Positions 10,981 through 46,539 of a stretch of 64,000 nt of DNA are shown one piece after another. The DNA is from Isoetes taiwanensis (Eukaryota > Streptophyta > Lycopodiopsida > Isoetales > Isoetaceae). The DNA is taken from positions 13,231,463 through 13,295,462 of the forward strand of contig JAJEKV010000025.1 of assembly GCA_021234155.1 (NCBI GenBank). Direction: 5' to 3'. The translations under genes were made by a program, and so were the position numbers. The notes under the pieces were generated by a model that was not told where the DNA came from, ran no database searches, and saw only the letters and a program-made list of their open reading frames with translations. The stretch's first letter is position 1; every line of letters starts with the position of its first letter.

Positions 10981-11736
10981 TTACAGAAAAGTTGGCTTCT
11001 TATTAATTTGACATCCCTAATTTAGGTATAAAATAAAAATCTAATTTAGGTGGTTTTGGGACACACATGGAAAGTGGGAAAATGAATGAACCATCAGAAT
11101 CTCGACGAATAGTGAAAGCTAAAATGTGGAAATGAAGTCGTGTGCATTTCCTATTGCTCAAGGAGAACCACAACAGGCTATGCACGCATAGGCAAGCCAC
11201 AAAATTATAAAACACAACTAAAACAAAAAATTGCAAAATGCTATGCCTGTGTCTTGTGCACGCATAACATAAAATAAAATCTTGTTGCCTATGTCTATGC
11301 GCACATAGCATAACCTAAAATCTTGTTGCCTGTGTCTCTGTGCGCACATCATAAATTAAAATCTTGTTGCCTGTGTCTATTGTCGAATCGAGCATAGCAT
11401 AAAATTTCTTGTTGGGAGGCCACATATAATATAAGAATCCTTTTTTTGTGGTATTTATTCATTCTCTTTGTAAGAGAACTCACTGAAAAAAAGGGCATGC
11501 ATAGAGCATGAAAATTTTCGTTCCAACTCTGGCTTTTATGGCATGTCTCTAGCTTATTGAATTTAGGCTTATTACAGGTTAAAAATAAAGGTTGAGCATA
11601 GGCACATCCTATTTGAAGAAACAAGGGTTTTGCTGAAGAACGGCTGCATTTTGCTGGTCGATTCTGGTCTTTGCTGGCCGAATCTAATCTTCCTGAAAGG
11701 CTGGTGGAAGCGTCTAGATACAACGGTGAATGCATG
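10981..11736 (+). repeat. 756-bp tandem duplication, upstream copy
   Basis: Starts TTACAGAAAAGTTGGC and repeats at 11737. It holds several TATGCRCGCATA-type palindromes. Minus-strand open frames read through it (11003-11311, 11349-11735) with repeated HRHRQQDF text created by those palindromic repeats, and are not convincing genes. The DNA just past 12494 continues from the second copy, showing a head-to-tail duplication. Confidence 0.93.
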
Positions 11737-12494
11737 TTACAGAAAAGTTGGCTTCTTATTAATTTGACATCCCTAATTTAGGTATAAAATAAAAATCTAA
11801 TTTAGGTGGTTTTGGGACACACATGGAAAGTGGGAAAATGAATGAACCATCAGAATCTCGACGAATAGTGAAAGCTAAAATGTGGAAATGAAGTCGTGTG
11901 CATTTCCTATTGCTCAAGGAGAACCACCACAGGCTATGCGCGCATAGGCAAGCCACAAAATTATAAAACACAACTAAAACAAAAAATTGCAAAATGCTAT
12001 GCCTGTGTCTTGTGCACGCATAACATAAAATAAAATCTTGTTGCCTATGTCTATGCGCACATAGCATAACATAAAATCTTGTTGCCTGTGTCTCTGTGCG
12101 CACATCATAAATTAAAATCTTGTTGCCTGTGTCTATTGTCGAATCGAGCATAACATAAAATTTCTTGTTGGGAGGCCACATATAATATAAGAATCCTTTT
12201 TTTGTGGTATTTATTCATTCTCTTTGTAAGAGAACTCACTGAAAAAAAGGGCATGCATAGAGCATGAAAATTTTCGTTCCAACTCTGGCTTTTATGGCAT
12301 GTCTCTAGCTTATTGAATTTAGGCTTATTACAGGTTAAAAATAAAGGTTCAGCATAGGCACATCCTATTTGAAGAAACAAGGGGTTTTTTTTTGAAGAAA
12401 CGGCGCATTTTTTGGTCGATTCGGTCTTTCTTTGGCGAATCTAATCTTCTGAAAAATTTGGTGGGCGTCTAGATACAACGGTGAATGCATGTTG
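11737..12494 (+). repeat. 756-bp tandem duplication, downstream copy
   Basis: Nearly identical to the upstream copy over its first ~640 bases (a handful of substitutions). In the last ~100 bases (about 12380-12475) every CTG of the upstream copy is altered, for example GATTCTGGTC becoming GATTCGGTC and TTTGCTGGCC becoming TTTCTTTGGC. Such a cluster suggests base-calling or assembly error instead of ordinary drift. Confidence 0.93.
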
Positions 12495-22382: not shown

Positions 22383-22390
22383 TATATATT
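22383..22390 (+). promoter_or_regulatory. TATA box of the Cys-rich secreted protein gene
   Basis: TATATATT lies 58 bases before the ATG at 22448, allowing a 5' leader of about 30 bases, short but usual for a plant gene. Confidence 0.6.
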
Positions 22391-22447: not shown

Positions 22448-23925
22448 ATGGCAAGCCCAGTGCTGGTATTTGCAGCCATAGCTAGCCTGCTGGCACTTGG
22501 GGTTACGGCATTCAACGTGTCAAAGATCGAACCGCTAAGTAAGTCTAAGTGTGGTTATTAGATAGAGCAAAATTCAAGAATGTTACTTATAACTTTTCAA
22601 TTGGTTTGTTTGTTGCAGAGGGAGAAGATCTTATGGTGGTCACCACCACAACAGCCTGCTTTGCTGATTTATTGTACAGGGGATTTGGAGTGCGCCCTTA
22701 TCTGTGCCCGGAGGGGTTCGAAAAGGATGGGCAGATGTGTTTCAGACGCTGCAACTTTGGTTACAGTGGAGAGGGAGATCAGTGCGTTATGAACTGCCCT
22801 CCCGGATTTTCCACCACCGGAGATTTCTGCACCAAAATGTGGGCCAAAGGCTGCTGCTGCATAGGATGCTGTAATGGCTGCCCCGACGGATCTACAGACA
22901 TTGGTTGTTTCTGCGCTCAATCCATCCATCGCCATTTCTATCCTCGTGGCCCCTCATCAGCCATGGTCTGCGCTCCAGGACAGGTAAAGTCTATTATTTC
23001 ATTGCTGTTTTCTTCACAATGCATAGAATTATAGATAGATAGATAGATAGATGGTATTTTTACGTCAATTGTCAATTATAATTGTCAATTATAAGGGTGC
23101 AACTACTCTAGAGTCTACACTAAACACTAAGAAAGATCAATCAATTATTAGTTAGTAAGTCGGTGCAACTACTCTAGACTAAGAAAAGATCAATCAATTA
23201 TTAGTTAGTGAGTGACTTCTACACCATACCACTTGACGCCATCCTATTAGTTACTAGCTTATATCCTTATCCCACTTGGCAGTATCCCTTAGGACATATG
23301 ACTGACGCTTACCACATATAGCGACTGTGGTATAAACTCATCATGCTTTGTTTTGTCACAGGATTTGTACGAGGGATTATGCTACCCCTCATGCCCCAAT
23401 GGGTACATTGGAATGGGCCCAATGTGCTGGGGAGGGAATCACAAAACCCATGTATTTCAGTGTAGTCCATTTCTATATACCACGGAGGCCAGCGCATGCG
23501 AAATGGTGGAGAAACGGCTCCATTTCATAGAGAAAGGATTGCGAAATGGCTGTCTTGCTGCTTTGTTGGGATCTACAGTATTACCAGTGCTGACCATGGA
23601 GGGGGCTGCAAGGATTTGCAAGGATAATATGCTCCAAGGTGTGACTGCCATCAATATGATTATGCAACTGACCAATGCTAAAATTTGCAACCCAATTGCT
23701 CCTACAATGTGTCTCATGCAAACCTCTAATATTGGAAACATCGGAAGTATCACAGGAAGCATTATGGTAACTGGAAGTTCAACCCAAACAATCACTGAAA
23801 GTATTAGTGCTACCCAAAGTTTCACAGAAAGTAGCAGTTTCACCCAAAGCCAACAGGTCACTAGAGACTTTGACAGGAGTGTTAGCGCCAACACTATCCT
23901 TGACAGGGATGAATTTGACTTATAG
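22448..23925 (+). CDS. Secreted cysteine-rich protein, 339 aa, three exons
   Basis: Exons 22448-22538, 22619-22983 and 23362-23925 join through GT-AG introns with continuous frame. The start is set by an N-terminal signal peptide (MASPVLVFAAIASLLALGV, cleavage near residue 21) and the TATA box upstream. Residues about 45-180 hold about 20 Cys in a repeated CP-x-GF ... C ... C pattern (LCPEGFEKDGQMCFRRC, MNCPPGFSTTGDFC) and a cluster, GCCCIGCCNGC. After a Cys-poorer middle domain the C terminus (about 285-325) is Ser/Thr-rich with quasi-repeats such as SITGSI, TITESISATQS and SFTQS, probably O-glycosylated. It is likely extracellular or cell-wall associated. I do not recognise the family and assign no function. 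Intron 2 carries a GATA microsatellite and a duplicated block, but the exons show no breaks, so it looks functional. Confidence 0.8.
23033..23215 (+). repeat. Intron 2 microsatellite and ~65-bp duplication
   Basis: About five AGAT units at 23033-23054, then GGTGCAACTACTCTAGA and AAGATCAATCAATTATTAG each repeated (about 23096 and 23162). All lies within intron 2 of the Cys-rich gene. Confidence 0.85.
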
Positions 23926-24128
23926 GCCTATGACATATTTCATTCAGTCTCATAGGACTTGGGATCTATAATAAACATCTACTCAATGTCTATGTTATTT
24001 AGTCGTTTGGGACCTATAATAAACATCTACTCATATCGATTTTACTTAGTTACGATCGTCTATGCGTTGCAAATGTTAAATTAAATGGCGTATGTATGCT
24101 GTATTTTTTGGAAGGACATGTTTTAAAC

Positions 24129-24352: not shown

Positions 24353-25186
24353 GACTAGAATAGGAAATGAAATAGTATTTTAACGTCCACTTGAGAATTA
24401 GTTGGTTTAGAAGACACAATTGGAGGCAATACGAGACAATTGAACTGACTTGATGCCGGGACAATATCTTGTTCTAGCTCTAATTAGCCACTCTCGACTA
24501 GCCGATTGGTCACTTAGGTAATGCATGTACTATCTATTCCACGTGAATCTAAGCAGACATCTCACCAAATGTGTTTACGTTTTGCTTCATTATTGAAACT
24601 GGATCAAATGGCAAATACATTCTCTATATTGAAAAAAGAGACGTATGAAGCCTCATAGACAAAATTGTATCACACTTTTACAATACACTTGCTTTGTAAG
24701 CAATGTCAGATGGAATGCTCTGCACTGACCTAGAGCCTGCAAGCTAATGGAGAAGACAAGTCACTTCCACACTCTCCTGCAATAAAAGAACTATCTATAT
24801 TACTTGTCTTGGTAACACTATGGCACTAGTCCTTAGCAGGACGTCTTGTTAATTTTTAAGACCAGATTTCGCACTGATTTGATAAGATTTATATTGGCAT
24901 ATCTAAGATGCTTCTTAACTTAAGATTACTAATATTGACACCCAAGTTTTATGGTGAGAAGATGATTTACGGGGGTTGTTTGAGTTTCCGTTGCAAGCCA
25001 GAATAAACTGTTGCATATCAATAGATGGCTTTGTATGACTAAAACTTTCTCATAAAAGATTTAGGAGATTGGAAATAGGAGGTTAGCATCTTCGTCTTGT
25101 CCTAATGGCTAGAATGTGAGTCTAAAAAGTGGCAAGTTCTATCTCCTTAACACACTGCTCCTTGGGTTTTTATAGCTAAAACAGTC
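24353..25186. other. No recognisable gene
   Basis: AT-rich sequence leading into the foldback; nothing supported. Confidence 0.5.
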
Positions 25187-25443
25187 ATAATGCCCTAGGG
25201 CGTTATCACAAAGGCTCATAACGCCGTAGGGCGTTATCACGAAGGCTCATAACACCCTCGGAGCAGGGTGTTAAGGAAGATAACGCCCTGGCCCTTGGGC
25301 GTTAATGGGAATAAAATTCTCGGGCAATATGGCCATGGCCAAAATGGCGAGGGCGTGCTGCTCCCGCACGCCCTCGCCATTTTGGCCATGGCCATATTGA
25401 CCTTGAAGTTTATTCCCATAACGCCCTCTGACCAGGGCGTTAT
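25187..25443. repeat. Long foldback built of TAACGCCC/GGGCGTTA modules
   Basis: The core is a perfect 34-bp stem (25325-25358 with 25366-25399) around a 7-base loop, TGCTCCC. The pairing extends imperfectly outward to arms at 25280-25358 and 25366-25443. Each arm's outer part is itself a small hairpin of the form ATAACGCCC-N-GGGCGTTA. Three more such modules precede it at 25187-25206, 25218-25237 and 25249-25273, joined by the spacer TCAC(A/G)AAGGCTC. A transcript would form one long double-stranded RNA hairpin. Open frames on both strands mirror each other and are not genes. Confidence 0.9.
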
Positions 25444-26885
25444 CTACCCCATAATTATCAACTTCTCCTTTCACCTCTTAGCTAAAAGTATTTTGCATTT
25501 GATAACAAATGTGCATTTTTGACAAAGGCCAAAGTTTCCCATAAAATATAAAATATTCAGCATGAATATGTGTCTATCATAAAAGAGGGTCTGCATGTTG
25601 CAGCCCCGGAATCCACTCAAAATGATCGAAGAAATTAAATGACAAAAGACAATGCAATGCACACACATTGCATTCCTTCCTAAATTGAAAAATTGAAAAT
25701 AGATAGAAGGAATTATGATGTCAAAGACAATGCAATATCAGGGAGAAAGGCTGGGGAACTTTGATCTACCTTGAGTTGGCCTTGAGCTTTCTCTCATTAA
25801 TTCCACTTGATTTTTTTGCTTTAAAGAGAGATTGCTTGCATTTACATTTAAGAGTTTCATTTGTTCCCCAACACTTCCTATTTAGCTCATTCTATAACAG
25901 GAATACAGACCAAAATTTTTACTGGAGAAGCATAGGGAATTTGACACAGATATCCATACCCAAGCTTTGGAACTGATACAACTTTGCTAAAGAAATATCA
26001 TGGTGACCAAGGCAAAAAGGAAGAATCCGTTTCATGCTCCCTAATTCTGCAGCCACCAGAATGGTATTAATAAATCTTCAATTAGCAAGATGGCGGTCGT
26101 GAGCAGTGCTATGTTCAAGTTCTTCCCTAAAATCTGATGCAGCATCCATTGCAATGGAGTATCTCAGAAGGGCATTGAAAATTCCACTCGAACATTTCTT
26201 TGATCCATTGGAAGAAGGAGAATAATGCACCTTAAGAGAAAAATGGCATATCCATTGTAAGATTTAAAACACAGTTTCTGTTAAATAGCCATATTTCTAA
26301 ATATTTCTCACATAATCATCCAACTAACAATTTTTTCATCTAGCACAGACCTACGGTAAAGACTTATAATGCATGCAAAAGCTGAATGATTCTTCTTCAT
26401 TTGGACATGGCCAATTTGTGCCCTAGCCAAGGATGCTAATGATTCTCGACATCTATTCGGTATTAACTCTTTGGAACATGCCACTCTTTGACAATTTGTT
26501 AAAACCTTTGGGTGTACATCAATCTGTGCTAACATGTTCTTCCAAATGCCAATCTGTGCAGACATGTTCTTCCAAATATCCCTATGTTTTAAAATTAAAG
26601 AAGAACCATTATTGGTCGGGATACCACATCCCATCCAAAATTTTGGACAAATTGTCGGCCATCTGATAGCCCTTTTAGATCCAACGTGGCATGGTTTTAG
26701 TCCATTGTTGGACGTTTTTTAGTGCTATTGAAGGCGGCAAATCAGAGACCCCCAAAATGGATTGTGCAGTGTATCCCGATGGTTCAACACGTGGCCTTGT
26801 ATAGTTCAGCTCTTTCCTTATTCGAAACGAACACTCTCTATTTTTAGAGCAACTGTGTTCCGTTGTGAACAAGGATCTTTCCATA
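25444..26885. other. No supported gene
   Basis: AT-rich DNA. The minus frame at 26308-26634 contains a small internal repeat (TTGGAAGAACATGT twice) but no recognised domain. Confidence 0.45.
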
Positions 26886-27113: not shown

Positions 27114-27655
27114 CCTATAATTTTTCTCCCTTTTTTTTATTTCTTTTCGGTTCTATGGTTGGAAATCATGCCTGGAAATTATGCTTTTTGCTAGATGCAT
27201 GCAAACAGTACCTCTGCAAGAATTAGCCTGATATTTCGGTCTTGAAAGCTGGTCCATCTACTTTTCCCACACAAAATCTTTTGCCTCCCCCAAATATGAA
27301 TGATCCAGATTTCTCTCCTCGGGATTGATGTTGTGGCATGCAATCCAACCTTCTGCTTGCTGATTGATCCATGTAATTCATTGACAACCAAATGCAACAC
27401 TTCACTTCTTTATAAATCAGAATATTTCTATGCATCTCTCGTGCACCAAATTTTCTTGCCTTTCTGCTTTCATTTAGAATGCTATTCAGGGCTCTTAAAA
27501 CTCGTTTCAATTTCCATCCATCGAAATCCCTTGCTCCTTCTCATGTTGGAGATGAAGATTCTGCTGTTACACTCCTTCCTCAGTGGCCTCGATTTGCTTG
27601 CCCTTCCTCCTGGGATGTAGAAAGGTAAGAAATTGAGAAATATGAAGAGAGGGTC
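27114..27655. other. No supported gene
   Basis: Frames on both strands (27223-27510 minus, 27300-27620 plus) overlap and are unrecognised. The 5' terminus of the pogo-like element probably lies in this interval. Confidence 0.4.
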
Positions 27656-28293
27656 ATGGACAAAAGAACAGATGGATGCTGCTTGGAAGAAGTAGAAGAG
27701 ATTTATTCTAACATTCGTAAGATTGCTAGAAAACATGACATCCCTCATACAACCCTAAGAAACTATCTGTTTGATATTTTTAAGGTGAAAAATGGGAAGA
27801 AGCCCAAGGTCTTCACCACAAAGGAGGAGGAGGATATTGTTGTTTGGTGCTTGCAGATGGCTGCTGATGGAACTGGAGTTACTATTCGGATGCTTAGAGA
27901 TAGGGTTGCAGAAATTGTTGCTGGCAGGCCAGCTCCTTTCACTGATGGCATTGTTGACATGAAATGGTGGAATTGTTTCAAGTGTAGACATCCAGAATTA
28001 GCTTTGAGGAAAGCACAGGTTGTTGATAATGCCCGAGCAATTGCAATCTCTGCCCCAAATTTAGATGCTTTTTATTCTGGTCATACAATTTGATGCAAAT
28101 CACATATAAATTGTGATGAATCTGGGGTGCAGGCAAGAAAAGAATCTGGCCTTAGGGTCATCTCAAGGAAGGGTGCAAAGAAGATTTCTGAAAGAACATT
28201 GAAGAATAGGGAGTGGCTGACTGTGCTCTGCTATGTTTCAACTTCAGGTACAAAACTTAGTGGTAGAGACTTTTATATTCCAAGAAAACAGGG
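27656..28293 (+). pseudogene. pogo/Tigger-like transposase, N-terminal half
   Basis: Residues 1-145 give a helix-turn-helix (IRKIARKHDIPHTTLRNYL) and a CENP-B/pogo-type second DNA-binding part (FTTKEEEDIVVWCLQMAA ... WWNCFKCRHPELALRKAQ). A TGA at 28091 interrupts the frame, which then continues in phase: INCDESGVQA, in the position of the first catalytic Asp of the DDE domain (NxDExG in relatives), then KGAKK and WLTVLCYVSTSG. It stops at 28290. The family normally has about 200 more residues with the other two catalytic acids, and these are missing. The protein would have cut and moved its own DNA in the nucleus, but this copy is inactive. Confidence 0.75.
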
Positions 28294-45321: not shown

Positions 45322-46419
45322 TCAGCAAACCTTTCCAAGAAGAGGAAATTTGTCATTTACAATGGGAATAGCTTGCCATTCGCCATTTAATCTTTGGAGT
45401 TTAAGGACCACATGGGGCACAGCTTGATTTTGTTCTTGACGATGACGCTTGTTCCTGCTATTTCGTTTGCTGCCCACTGATTTAGTTTGCTGCAACACCC
45501 AGGGATGGGATAAAATATGTTGCAACGATATTCTTTTTTCTGGATTAGGCTGCAACATGGCCAGAACAACATCTTTTGCTTCGGATGATACATGAGCAGG
45601 GAAATTTAAATGGGAAACTGTCAGATCCTGCCCATTAACCAGCCTGCGTTCAACTTCTGAGCATTTGAGTTTCGGAAATGCATCCCAGCCTGTAAGTGCC
45701 TCATAAAGAATAATCCCCAACCCCCAAATATCAACCTCCTTGGAGTATCTTCGACCCACAACCTCTGGGGCCAAATATCTTTGAGTTCCTAGCACTTCAG
45801 AAAAATATGGAGTATCTAAAGCACTAAAACAAGCAGAAAGACCAAAATCGCACACTTTTACATCGTAGGGTTTTCCACCGGAGCTTATCAGAATATTTGC
45901 AGGCTTCAGATCACGATGCACAACTCCATTTGCGTGCAAATCCTGTAACGTCTTTGCCAGATTTTGAATAAGAAGAGCGCATTCTGGCTCCGAGAGCTTA
46001 CCTTTTTTCTCAATTCTGTCTGCCAGGCTGCATTCACAGAGCTCCATAATAAAATGCAAATAATCGTTGTCGTTGATCACCTCTTCTAGATGCACAACGC
46101 CGGGGCAGCTGGCTAATTTTTGCATGATTTCCATCTCCGTTCTGGCATATGTGTTCTTGGAGGTGCTTTTGCAAGCAAATTTCTTACTGTCCTCCACTCT
46201 TTTGCATTGGAAAACAATAGCTTGCCCACCTTCGCCGATCTGTTTGAGCAGATCATAGTCTTCCAGCAGCTCGGGAAATTTGCTGGAGTATACAACGTTC
46301 AGATCCTTCGTCGTCTTCATCTCTAAACCCTGCAACTGTAAGTTACGCAAATGCACAGAATGCAAAGCTTCAACCCTTTTAACCCTTTTTAAGGGCCGCG
46401 TTTTCCATGACAATGGCAA
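45322..46419 (-). CDS. Ser/Thr protein kinase, CaMK/CDPK-like, 365 aa, intronless
   Basis: A complete kinase domain spans about residues 55-309: Gly loop IGEGGQAIVF (61-70), ATP lysine K84, helix-C Glu at 95, hinge MELCE, catalytic loop HRDLKPAN (168-175), DFG at 191-193, APE at 218-220, DIWGLG (230-235) and a closing Arg at 296. It would phosphorylate Ser/Thr of unknown substrates. A short basic N terminus precedes the domain, and after it comes a basic stretch (KRNSRNKRHRQ, a possible nuclear signal). EF hands are absent, so it is not a full calcium-dependent kinase. The start gives the longest frame; Met34 is an alternative. No in-frame stops and all catalytic residues are kept, so it is probably functional. 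A partial copy of its 5' part lies at 47219-47432. Confidence 0.88.
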   Translation of the reverse strand: MPLSWKTRPLKRVKRVEALHSVHLRNLQLQGLEMKTTKDLNVVYSSKFPELLEDYDLLKQIGEGGQAIVFQCKRVEDSKKFACKSTSKNTYARTEMEIMQKLASCPGVVHLEEVINDNDYLHFIMELCECSLADRIEKKGKLSEPECALLIQNLAKTLQDLHANGVVHRDLKPANILISSGGKPYDVKVCDFGLSACFSALDTPYFSEVLGTQRYLAPEVVGRRYSKEVDIWGLGIILYEALTGWDAFPKLKCSEVERRLVNGQDLTVSHLNFPAHVSSEAKDVVLAMLQPNPEKRISLQHILSHPWVLQQTKSVGSKRNSRNKRHRQEQNQAVPHVVLKLQRLNGEWQAIPIVNDKFPLLGKVC

Positions 46420-46539
46420 AACTCCTGATTTTAGGTTGCGTGTTTTGCTCTGATATTTTTAGCTTTTCCAATTGTAGTAACAGATTTTTCGCGAACTTGT
46501 CATCGGCTAAGTTGGCGGACGAACAATTTGAACATGTAA

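What the first reader, a model, noticed from the sequence alone, without database searches (positions are those of the whole stretch)
22448..23925. Intact gene for an unrecognised secreted Cys-rich protein with a Ser/Thr-rich tail
Signal peptide, about 25 cysteines with CP-x-GF repeats and a GCCCIGCCNGC cluster, then mucin-like quasi-repeats. Clean splice sites and a TATA box suggest it is expressed. It may be a lineage-restricted extracellular protein.
Basis: partly seen in the sequence, partly recalled or inferred. Interest (0 to 1): 0.7.

Follow-up and report, generated by a model that had tools for sequence, protein, structure and literature searches.

The report
Secreted cysteine-rich quillwort protein family
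An intact quillwort gene encodes an apparently secreted, cysteine-rich protein of a multi-copy family that no curated library searched here names; its core repeat also occurs in bacteria, and the youngest copies may be diverging unusually fast.

Summary
Exons 22448-22538, 22619-22983 and 23362-23925 join in frame to 339 aa with 25 Cys and a signal peptide by eye. The genome fits Isoetes taiwanensis in size and contig count.

It is not a lone gene: tblastn finds 58 exon matches, about 27 places. Of 14 gene models fitted, 13 keep the intron 2 donor in place and 10 have a candidate signal-peptide exon.

Nor is it lineage-restricted. The Cys-rich core is two copies of a ~55-residue unit also found in bacterial proteins. 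A bacteria-only profile scores the 14 plant proteins 41-94 bits; 2,800 shuffles keeping Cys places reach 17.5 at most. Pfam, NCBIfam, PHROGs and PDB gave no match at E 0.001. The helical C-terminal domain has no detected bacterial counterpart.

In the youngest subclade nonsynonymous change exceeds synonymous (omega 1.7-2.1, P 0.02-0.03); in L006-L010 it also exceeds noncoding change. The window gene itself does not exceed noncoding. Older pairs are purified.

Best reading: a secreted recognition or defence protein with variable loops on a disulfide scaffold. Function is inferred; expression is untested.

The parts
22383..22389 (+). TATA-like element TATATAT, 65 bases before the start codon
   Evidence: same element at -64 in paralogues L006 and L010
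22448..22538 (+). exon 1: signal peptide MASPVLVFAAIASLLALGVTA (by eye) and short linker; ends in phase 1
   Evidence: a hydrophobic candidate exon 1 in the same phase was found in 10 of 14 models
22539..22618 (+). intron 1 (80 bases, GT-AG)
22619..22983 (+). exon 2: repeat unit 1 (aa 44-101), six-Cys cluster GCCCIGCCNGC (aa 108-118), DIGCFC, and the start of repeat unit 2 (aa 138-152)
   Evidence: AlphaFold model mean pLDDT 79, short strands
22984..23361 (+). intron 2 (378 bases, phase 0)
23362..23715 (+). exon 3, first part: rest of repeat unit 2 (GLCYPSC...GPMCW) and a Cys-containing three-helix domain
   Evidence: helices 43-55, 62-72, 79-104 of the exon; blocks mostly at pLDDT 64-84
23716..23925 (+). 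exon 3, last part: Ser/Thr-rich tail without Pro, low-confidence and probably disordered, and stop codon
   Evidence: (pLDDT under 50 from residue 109)
23970..24023 (+). two AATAAA polyadenylation-signal-like hexamers at 23970 and 24018

Best explanation
The gene makes a secreted, disulfide-braced protein of a multi-gene Isoetes family. After the signal peptide is removed, two copies of an ancient Cys-rich unit (about RGxGxPxxC..GxExDGxLCYPxCxxGYxGxGPxCWxxCPxGYxDxGxxC), joined by a six-Cys cluster, form a rigid rod of short beta-hairpins. A small Cys-containing helical domain, found so far only in the plant genes, and in this subclade a flexible Ser/Thr tail follow. I propose that it works outside the cell as a binding or recognition protein, most likely in defence: the Cys scaffold stays fixed while exposed loops vary, and gene duplication supplies new binding surfaces. 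Shown here: gene structure, family, homology of the repeat to bacterial proteins, conserved Cys. Moderately supported: nonsynonymous excess in the youngest subclade. Inferred only: secretion, disulfide pairing, rod shape, binding, defence.
For: Gene model and family. Homology to bacterial proteins: tblastn to two bacterial loci (E-values relative to the candidates only); 19 of 377 genomes sampled in the phylum of G002, L033's own genome included; profile-profile E 2.5e-22; Cys-preserving shuffle control, 0 of 2,800 shuffles. In L039 and L041 the unit follows a signal peptide by eye. Of 8 bacterial proteins scanned, 3 also carry extracellular-type binding domains above the Pfam cut-off: Laminin_G_3 (L039), Ricin_B_lectin (L041), PAN (L037). 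Long-term purifying selection: pN/pS WIN-L007 0.41, L007-L008 0.21, L016-L018 0.33, L023-L026 0.26, the last two with near-saturated pS. Young subclade: omega 1.72 (P 0.033), 2.14 with masking (P 0.017) for WIN, L006, L010 together; pN/pS above 1 in 13 of 18 pairs, P under 0.05 in 6 of 18; L006-L010 nonsynonymous 9.2%, synonymous 4.0%, noncoding 3.1%, N against noncoding P 1e-7; in L006-L010 0 of 26 Cys sites changed against 49 of 241 others.
Against: No expression, protein or binding data. The window gene itself does not exceed noncoding divergence: WIN-L006 N 9.1% against noncoding 12.0%, WIN-L010 9.9% against 11.0%. Of six pairwise omega tests five are at P 0.06-0.33 and one at 0.01; with another alignment the L006-L010 Fisher P is 0.07 unmasked and 0.03-0.04 masked. 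Tests share sequences and are not corrected for number. The four pairs with L014 give pN/pS 0.72-0.81. Of the 6 significant pairs 4 include L013, which is broken, and L034 has stops in its tail. One of 26 Cys sites changed in WIN-L006 and 2 of 27 in WIN-L010. The young subclade holds many broken copies, so weak constraint is part of the picture. No fold match supports a binding mechanism.
Confidence: 0.45

Rival explanations
1. Structural or adhesive extracellular protein, for example of mucilage, spore wall or cell wall: the Cys-rich rod is a cross-linked spacer and the tail a flexible linker; the apparent fast change is relaxed constraint in redundant copies.
For: In bacteria the unit can be repeated and sit beside lectin-like domains. 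Several sister copies carry stops, a frameshift or an insertion. The window gene's own divergence does not exceed noncoding.
Against: Relaxed constraint gives pN equal to pS and to introns, not above them, as seen in L006-L010 (weaker), and would not be expected to spare all 26 Cys sites of that pair.
Confidence: 0.3
2. Reproductive or signalling protein (gamete, spore or cell-cell recognition) under diversifying selection.
For: Fast change on a fixed scaffold also fits reproductive recognition.
Against: No tissue data; about 27 places seems many for a gamete recognition gene.
Confidence: 0.12
3. Metal-binding, metallothionein-like extracellular protein using the CCCxxCCxxC cluster.
For: Cluster of six Cys in 10 residues.
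Against: The cluster is optional: the paralogue L020 has lost all six cluster Cys, and the bacterial L041 lacks it, while the other Cys remain. Joint loss fits a self-contained disulfide or metal module, so this is not excluded.
Confidence: 0.06
4. Decaying pseudogene or annotation artefact.
For: Several sister copies are broken; no transcript was seen.
Against: The window copy has no stop, canonical splice sites and 25 Cys; the family is under purifying selection in older pairs.
Confidence: 0.05

Closest known systems
Uncurated bacterial Cys-rich repeat proteins (L039, L041, L043, L032, L033)
   Same: Same repeat unit; L039, L041 and L032 have unit 1, a linker and unit 2 followed by a helical-looking region; signal peptide by eye in L039 and L041.
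   Different: No introns; C-terminal region not detectably related to the plant one; some have extra lectin-like domains or more repeats.
Furin-like Cys-rich repeats of R-spondins
   Same: C..GY..G..C...CP.GF pattern; best sequence match of the family profile in the PDB, E 0.054 over 25 positions. That both are disulfide-braced hairpins is recalled for R-spondin and predicted for ours.
   Different: Not significant; not among the Foldseek rows shown for either model (15 of 15; 50 of 58).
Disulfide-rich animal toxins such as conotoxins
   Same: Conserved Cys with variable loops between them, duplicated genes; the start of the abstract of PMC3823881 (seen in the listing) says this of conotoxins.
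   Different: Analogy of evolution only; no sequence relation tested or claimed.
DUF4215 (Pfam PF13948)
   Same: Weak match of 1 of 12 family members, E 0.041. That it is a Cys-rich repeat common in myxobacteria is recalled.
   Different: Only 1 of 12, weak; not listed for the window protein nor for the bacterial relatives scanned.

Membership tests
Bacterial/plant RGxG-LCYPxC-GPxCW repeat family (unnamed) | Repeat unit with conserved Cys spacing and non-Cys residues | tested here: met
   Bacteria-only profile scores WIN 83.2 bits; best of 200 shuffles of WIN keeping Cys places 3.2; profile-profile E 2.5e-22
Bacterial/plant RGxG-LCYPxC-GPxCW repeat family (unnamed) | Two units after a signal peptide | tested here: met
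   in bacteria this order holds for L039 and L041; signal peptides judged by eye
Bacterial/plant RGxG-LCYPxC-GPxCW repeat family (unnamed) | Bacterial-type C-terminal region | tested here: not met
   hmmsearch best E 0.42, hhalign probability 0.1%; match stops soon after the CW motif
EGF-like (Pfam cEGF) | Pfam gathering score | tested here: not met
   8.5 bits against cut-off 26.6
Furin-like / R-spondin | Significant sequence or fold match | tested here: inconclusive
   E 0.054; no fold match
Metallothionein-like | Metal binding through Cys clusters | not testable with these tools
   Six-Cys cluster present, but lost as a block in L020
Mucin-like / plant arabinogalactan-type tail | Pro with Ser/Thr (recalled definition) | tested here: not met
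   0 Pro in the last 70 residues

The most novel reading that the evidence does not exclude
An unnamed Cys-rich recognition module shared by bacteria and a lycophyte has founded a rapidly diversifying secreted defence family in quillworts: a fixed disulfide scaffold whose loops, in the youngest pair, change faster than the introns beside them, as in venom-type arms races, built on a fold without a detected solved relative.
Probability: 0.25. Interest if true: 0.72.

Novelty: new variant of a known kind. Interest (0 to 1): 0.5.

Why it matters
The repeat is shared between bacteria and a plant yet matches no curated family among those searched. A family definition would let it be found, and its spread across eukaryotes or transfer from bacteria be tested. 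If the fast change of the youngest copies is real selection, lycophytes, whose defence proteins are to my knowledge little studied, would have a tractable gene family for it. In the main text of two quillwort genome papers the words 'cysteine' and 'secreted' do not occur.

Tried and rejected
Known-family searches without a match at E 0.001 for the plant family: Pfam, NCBIfam (best E 0.03, far under its cut-off), PHROGs, PDB sequences (best E 0.027, to cellobiose dehydrogenase in the tail region; 28; best E 0.054). For L032 and L033 likewise (Pfam 40, NCBIfam 41, PHROGs 42; PDB 43 for L032 only). PDB folds: Foldseek best E 3.0 for the exon 3 model and 1.1 for exon 2; VIA-align best Z 3.5 and 3.0. 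Absence there does not show a new fold; the exon 3 model is poor overall (mean pLDDT 54.4).

Viral origin: three scans of viral contigs gave no relative; phages and plasmids, queried with part of the bacterial L032 only, gave none.

Chance similarity by Cys content: rejected by Cys-preserving shuffles. Homology of the plant and bacterial C-terminal regions: not found.

Window gene as fast-evolving in its own right: not supported against noncoding DNA; the claim is restricted to the subclade, mainly L006-L010.

Literature: searches (listings only) named no such family; one search was unspecific (164,167 papers held at least one term, 5 listed); one search searched six short motif strings and one spider-silk paper held one of them. 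I recall, without any call, similar motifs in predicted proteins of bryophytes, fungi and protists; no eukaryote collection could be searched, so this is not evidence.

Full report
What the window is. The window lies in a genome of 1,658,258,908 bases in 1,110 contigs. It carries full-length rbcL that reads as a land-plant one by eye. The Isoetes taiwanensis paper PMC8566536 (passages seen) reports 1658.30 Mb in 204 scaffolds and 909 contigs.

The gene. Exons 22448-22538, 22619-22983 and 23362-23925 join in phases 1 and 0 to 339 aa with 25 Cys. A TATATAT lies at -65 and AATAAA at 23970 and 24018. The first exon is a typical signal peptide by eye; no predictor was run.

The family. tblastn in the own genome gave 58 matches at E up to 0.001 on 14 contigs, which group into 27 places at a 2-kb gap (28 at 1 kb, 23 at 4 kb). 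I modelled 14 genes, the window's included, choosing splice sites that fit the conserved frame, so the agreement is not blind. All 14 have AG acceptors for both introns; 13 have a GT donor at the conserved place of intron 2 and L008 has a TAG there; a candidate signal-peptide exon was found in 10 of 14, not in L016, L017, L018 and L020. Not modelled were fragments and broken copies, such as those with 5 to 8 stops at C1029:13.706-13.719 Mb. In an alignment of 12 of the 14 models (L008 and L024 left out), 17 of the 25 window Cys are invariant. The tree groups the window with L006 and L010 (support 1.000), then with L007 and L008 (0.997). The Ser/Thr tail is seen in this group; in L006 and L034 a stop lies inside it, in L010 it is shorter.

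Outside relatives. A scan of genome contigs with alignment A2 gave 2 relatives from 59 pattern matches: an Elusimicrobiales MAG (L032, E 2e-20) and a Deltaproteobacteria MAG (L033, E 6e-19), E-values relative to the candidates only. With alignment A3, 1 of 198 genomes sampled in the phylum of G001 matched, that one being L032's own genome, and 19 of 377 in the phylum of G002, L033's own included. Of those 19, six have E of 2e-19 or better; the other 13 are weak, E 1.5e-9 to 7.5e-4. Only the best candidates of each genome were scored. The phyla are not named by the tool; from L033's title and genome sizes up to 13 Mb I guess Myxococcota for the second. Other phyla were not sampled in this way, so the spread is a lower bound. 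The bacterial proteins read without introns and carry repeats like SYGRGxG..C...GLCYPxCxxGYxGVGPVCWxxCPxGY. L039 and L041 have the plant order: signal peptide by eye, unit 1, linker, unit 2, helical-looking region. Plant exon 2 (14 rows) against four bacterial proteins gives profile-profile E 2.5e-22. As a control, a profile of the four bacterial proteins scored the 14 plant proteins 41.3 to 93.8 bits, while 200 shuffles of each that keep every Cys in place reached at most 17.5 (0 of 2,800 reach the real score). The C-terminal regions are not related by these tests. Searching the own genome with the bacterial L041 found two plant members directly, E 3.8e-6 and 6.7e-5.

Partner domains. Of 8 bacterial proteins scanned, 3 pass Pfam cut-offs for other domains: L037 PAN, L039 Laminin_G_3 and L041 ricin-type lectin repeats; L041 also passes the cut-off of CDtoxinA over part of its lectin repeats. 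L040 and L042 have no match, L043 only a sub-threshold SseC-like one, and L032 and L033 only weak ones. The frames of L040 and L041 run off the fetched stretch. This points to an extracellular binding or spacer role for the unit; it does not prove one.

Structure. Exon 2 folds with mean pLDDT 79.0 and pTM 0.59 into short strands in pairs. Exon 3 has three helices, in blocks mostly at pLDDT 64-84, and a low-confidence tail; its mean is 54.4. No solved structure matched well. The whole protein could not be folded as one chain.

Evolution. Older pairs are under purifying selection: pN/pS 0.41 for WIN-L007, 0.21 for L007-L008, 0.33 for L016-L018, 0.26 for L023-L026; pS is near saturation in the last two. 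In the youngest subclade the ratio exceeds 1. For WIN, L006 and L010 together omega is 1.72 (P 0.033), or 2.14 (P 0.017) with codons near gaps masked; the six pairwise tests run from P 0.01 to 0.33. For L006-L010 nonsynonymous change is 67.0 of 729 sites, synonymous 8.0 of 201 (P 0.0086) and noncoding 28 of 914; nonsynonymous against noncoding P 1e-7, synonymous against noncoding P 0.51. With a different alignment and without exon 1 the same pair gives Fisher P 0.07, or 0.033 and 0.043 with masking, and bootstrap P 0.0135, 0.015 and 0.001. In that pair no Cys site changed (0 of 26) while 49 of 241 others did (P 0.003); WIN-L006 has 1 of 26 changed and WIN-L010 2 of 27. Over all 18 pairs, pN/pS is above 1 in 13 and Fisher P under 0.05 in 6, of which 4 include L013. 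Against the reading: the window gene's nonsynonymous divergence from L006 and L010 (9.1%, 9.9%) is not above noncoding (12.0%, 11.0%), the four pairs with L014 give ratios of 0.72-0.81, L034-L013b gives 0.99, and L013 is broken by a frameshift and an insertion of about 2.4 kb. Tests share sequences and were not corrected for number. Selection, gene conversion of flanks and chance are therefore not fully separated, although in L006-L010 exons and introns alternate in divergence (exon 2 9.9%, intron 2 5.6%, exon 3 core 8.4%, flanks 2.1% and 0.5%), which conversion alone would not easily give.

Reading. The anatomy (probable secretion, Cys scaffold, variable loops, duplicating genes, bacterial relatives some of which carry lectin-like domains) fits an extracellular recognition protein, most likely in defence. 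Structural use is the main rival. Neither has direct evidence; expression and localisation would separate them.

Novelty. The repeat matches no entry at E 0.001 in the curated libraries searched, and the paper searches (listings only) named no such family. In the main text of two quillwort genome papers, searched by word, 'cysteine' and 'secreted' do not occur. It is an uncatalogued family of a familiar kind, Cys-rich secreted proteins, hence 'new variant of a known kind'.

Noticed in passing
window 45325-46458 (-): 378-aa open frame with a full protein kinase domain uninterrupted by introns (Pfam Pkinase E 8.1e-62).
   Followed up: partly
window 27629-28090 (+): Open frame with a Tc5-type transposase DNA-binding domain (E 6.2e-5) and a weak Psq helix-turn-helix match: probably a transposon remnant.
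   Followed up: partly
window 25144-25448: Inverted repeats with arms of 27 to 54 nt, two of them nested, perhaps a small foldback element about 1.2 kb after the gene.
   Followed up: no
window 11244-11380 and 12000-12136: The same 41-base tandem repeat unit occurs in two arrays about 0.75 kb apart.
   Followed up: no
L013 (G000:C1068:6546300-6551300): A sister copy whose third exon is split by an insertion of about 2.4 kb, with a frameshift in exon 2.
   Followed up: partly
L022 and L024 (C1086 and C914): Two family copies with about 8 differences over 251 codons on different contigs; recent duplicates or alleles assembled apart.
   Followed up: no
L020 (G000:C909:3686700-3688900): This paralogue lost all six Cys of the GCCCxGCCxxC cluster together while keeping the other aligned Cys, which suggests that the cluster is a self-contained unit.
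   Followed up: no
L037 (genome of L033, contig C202): A PAN domain, the Cys-rich repeats and a sub-threshold eCIS_core match (E 0.0065) in one protein.
   Followed up: no
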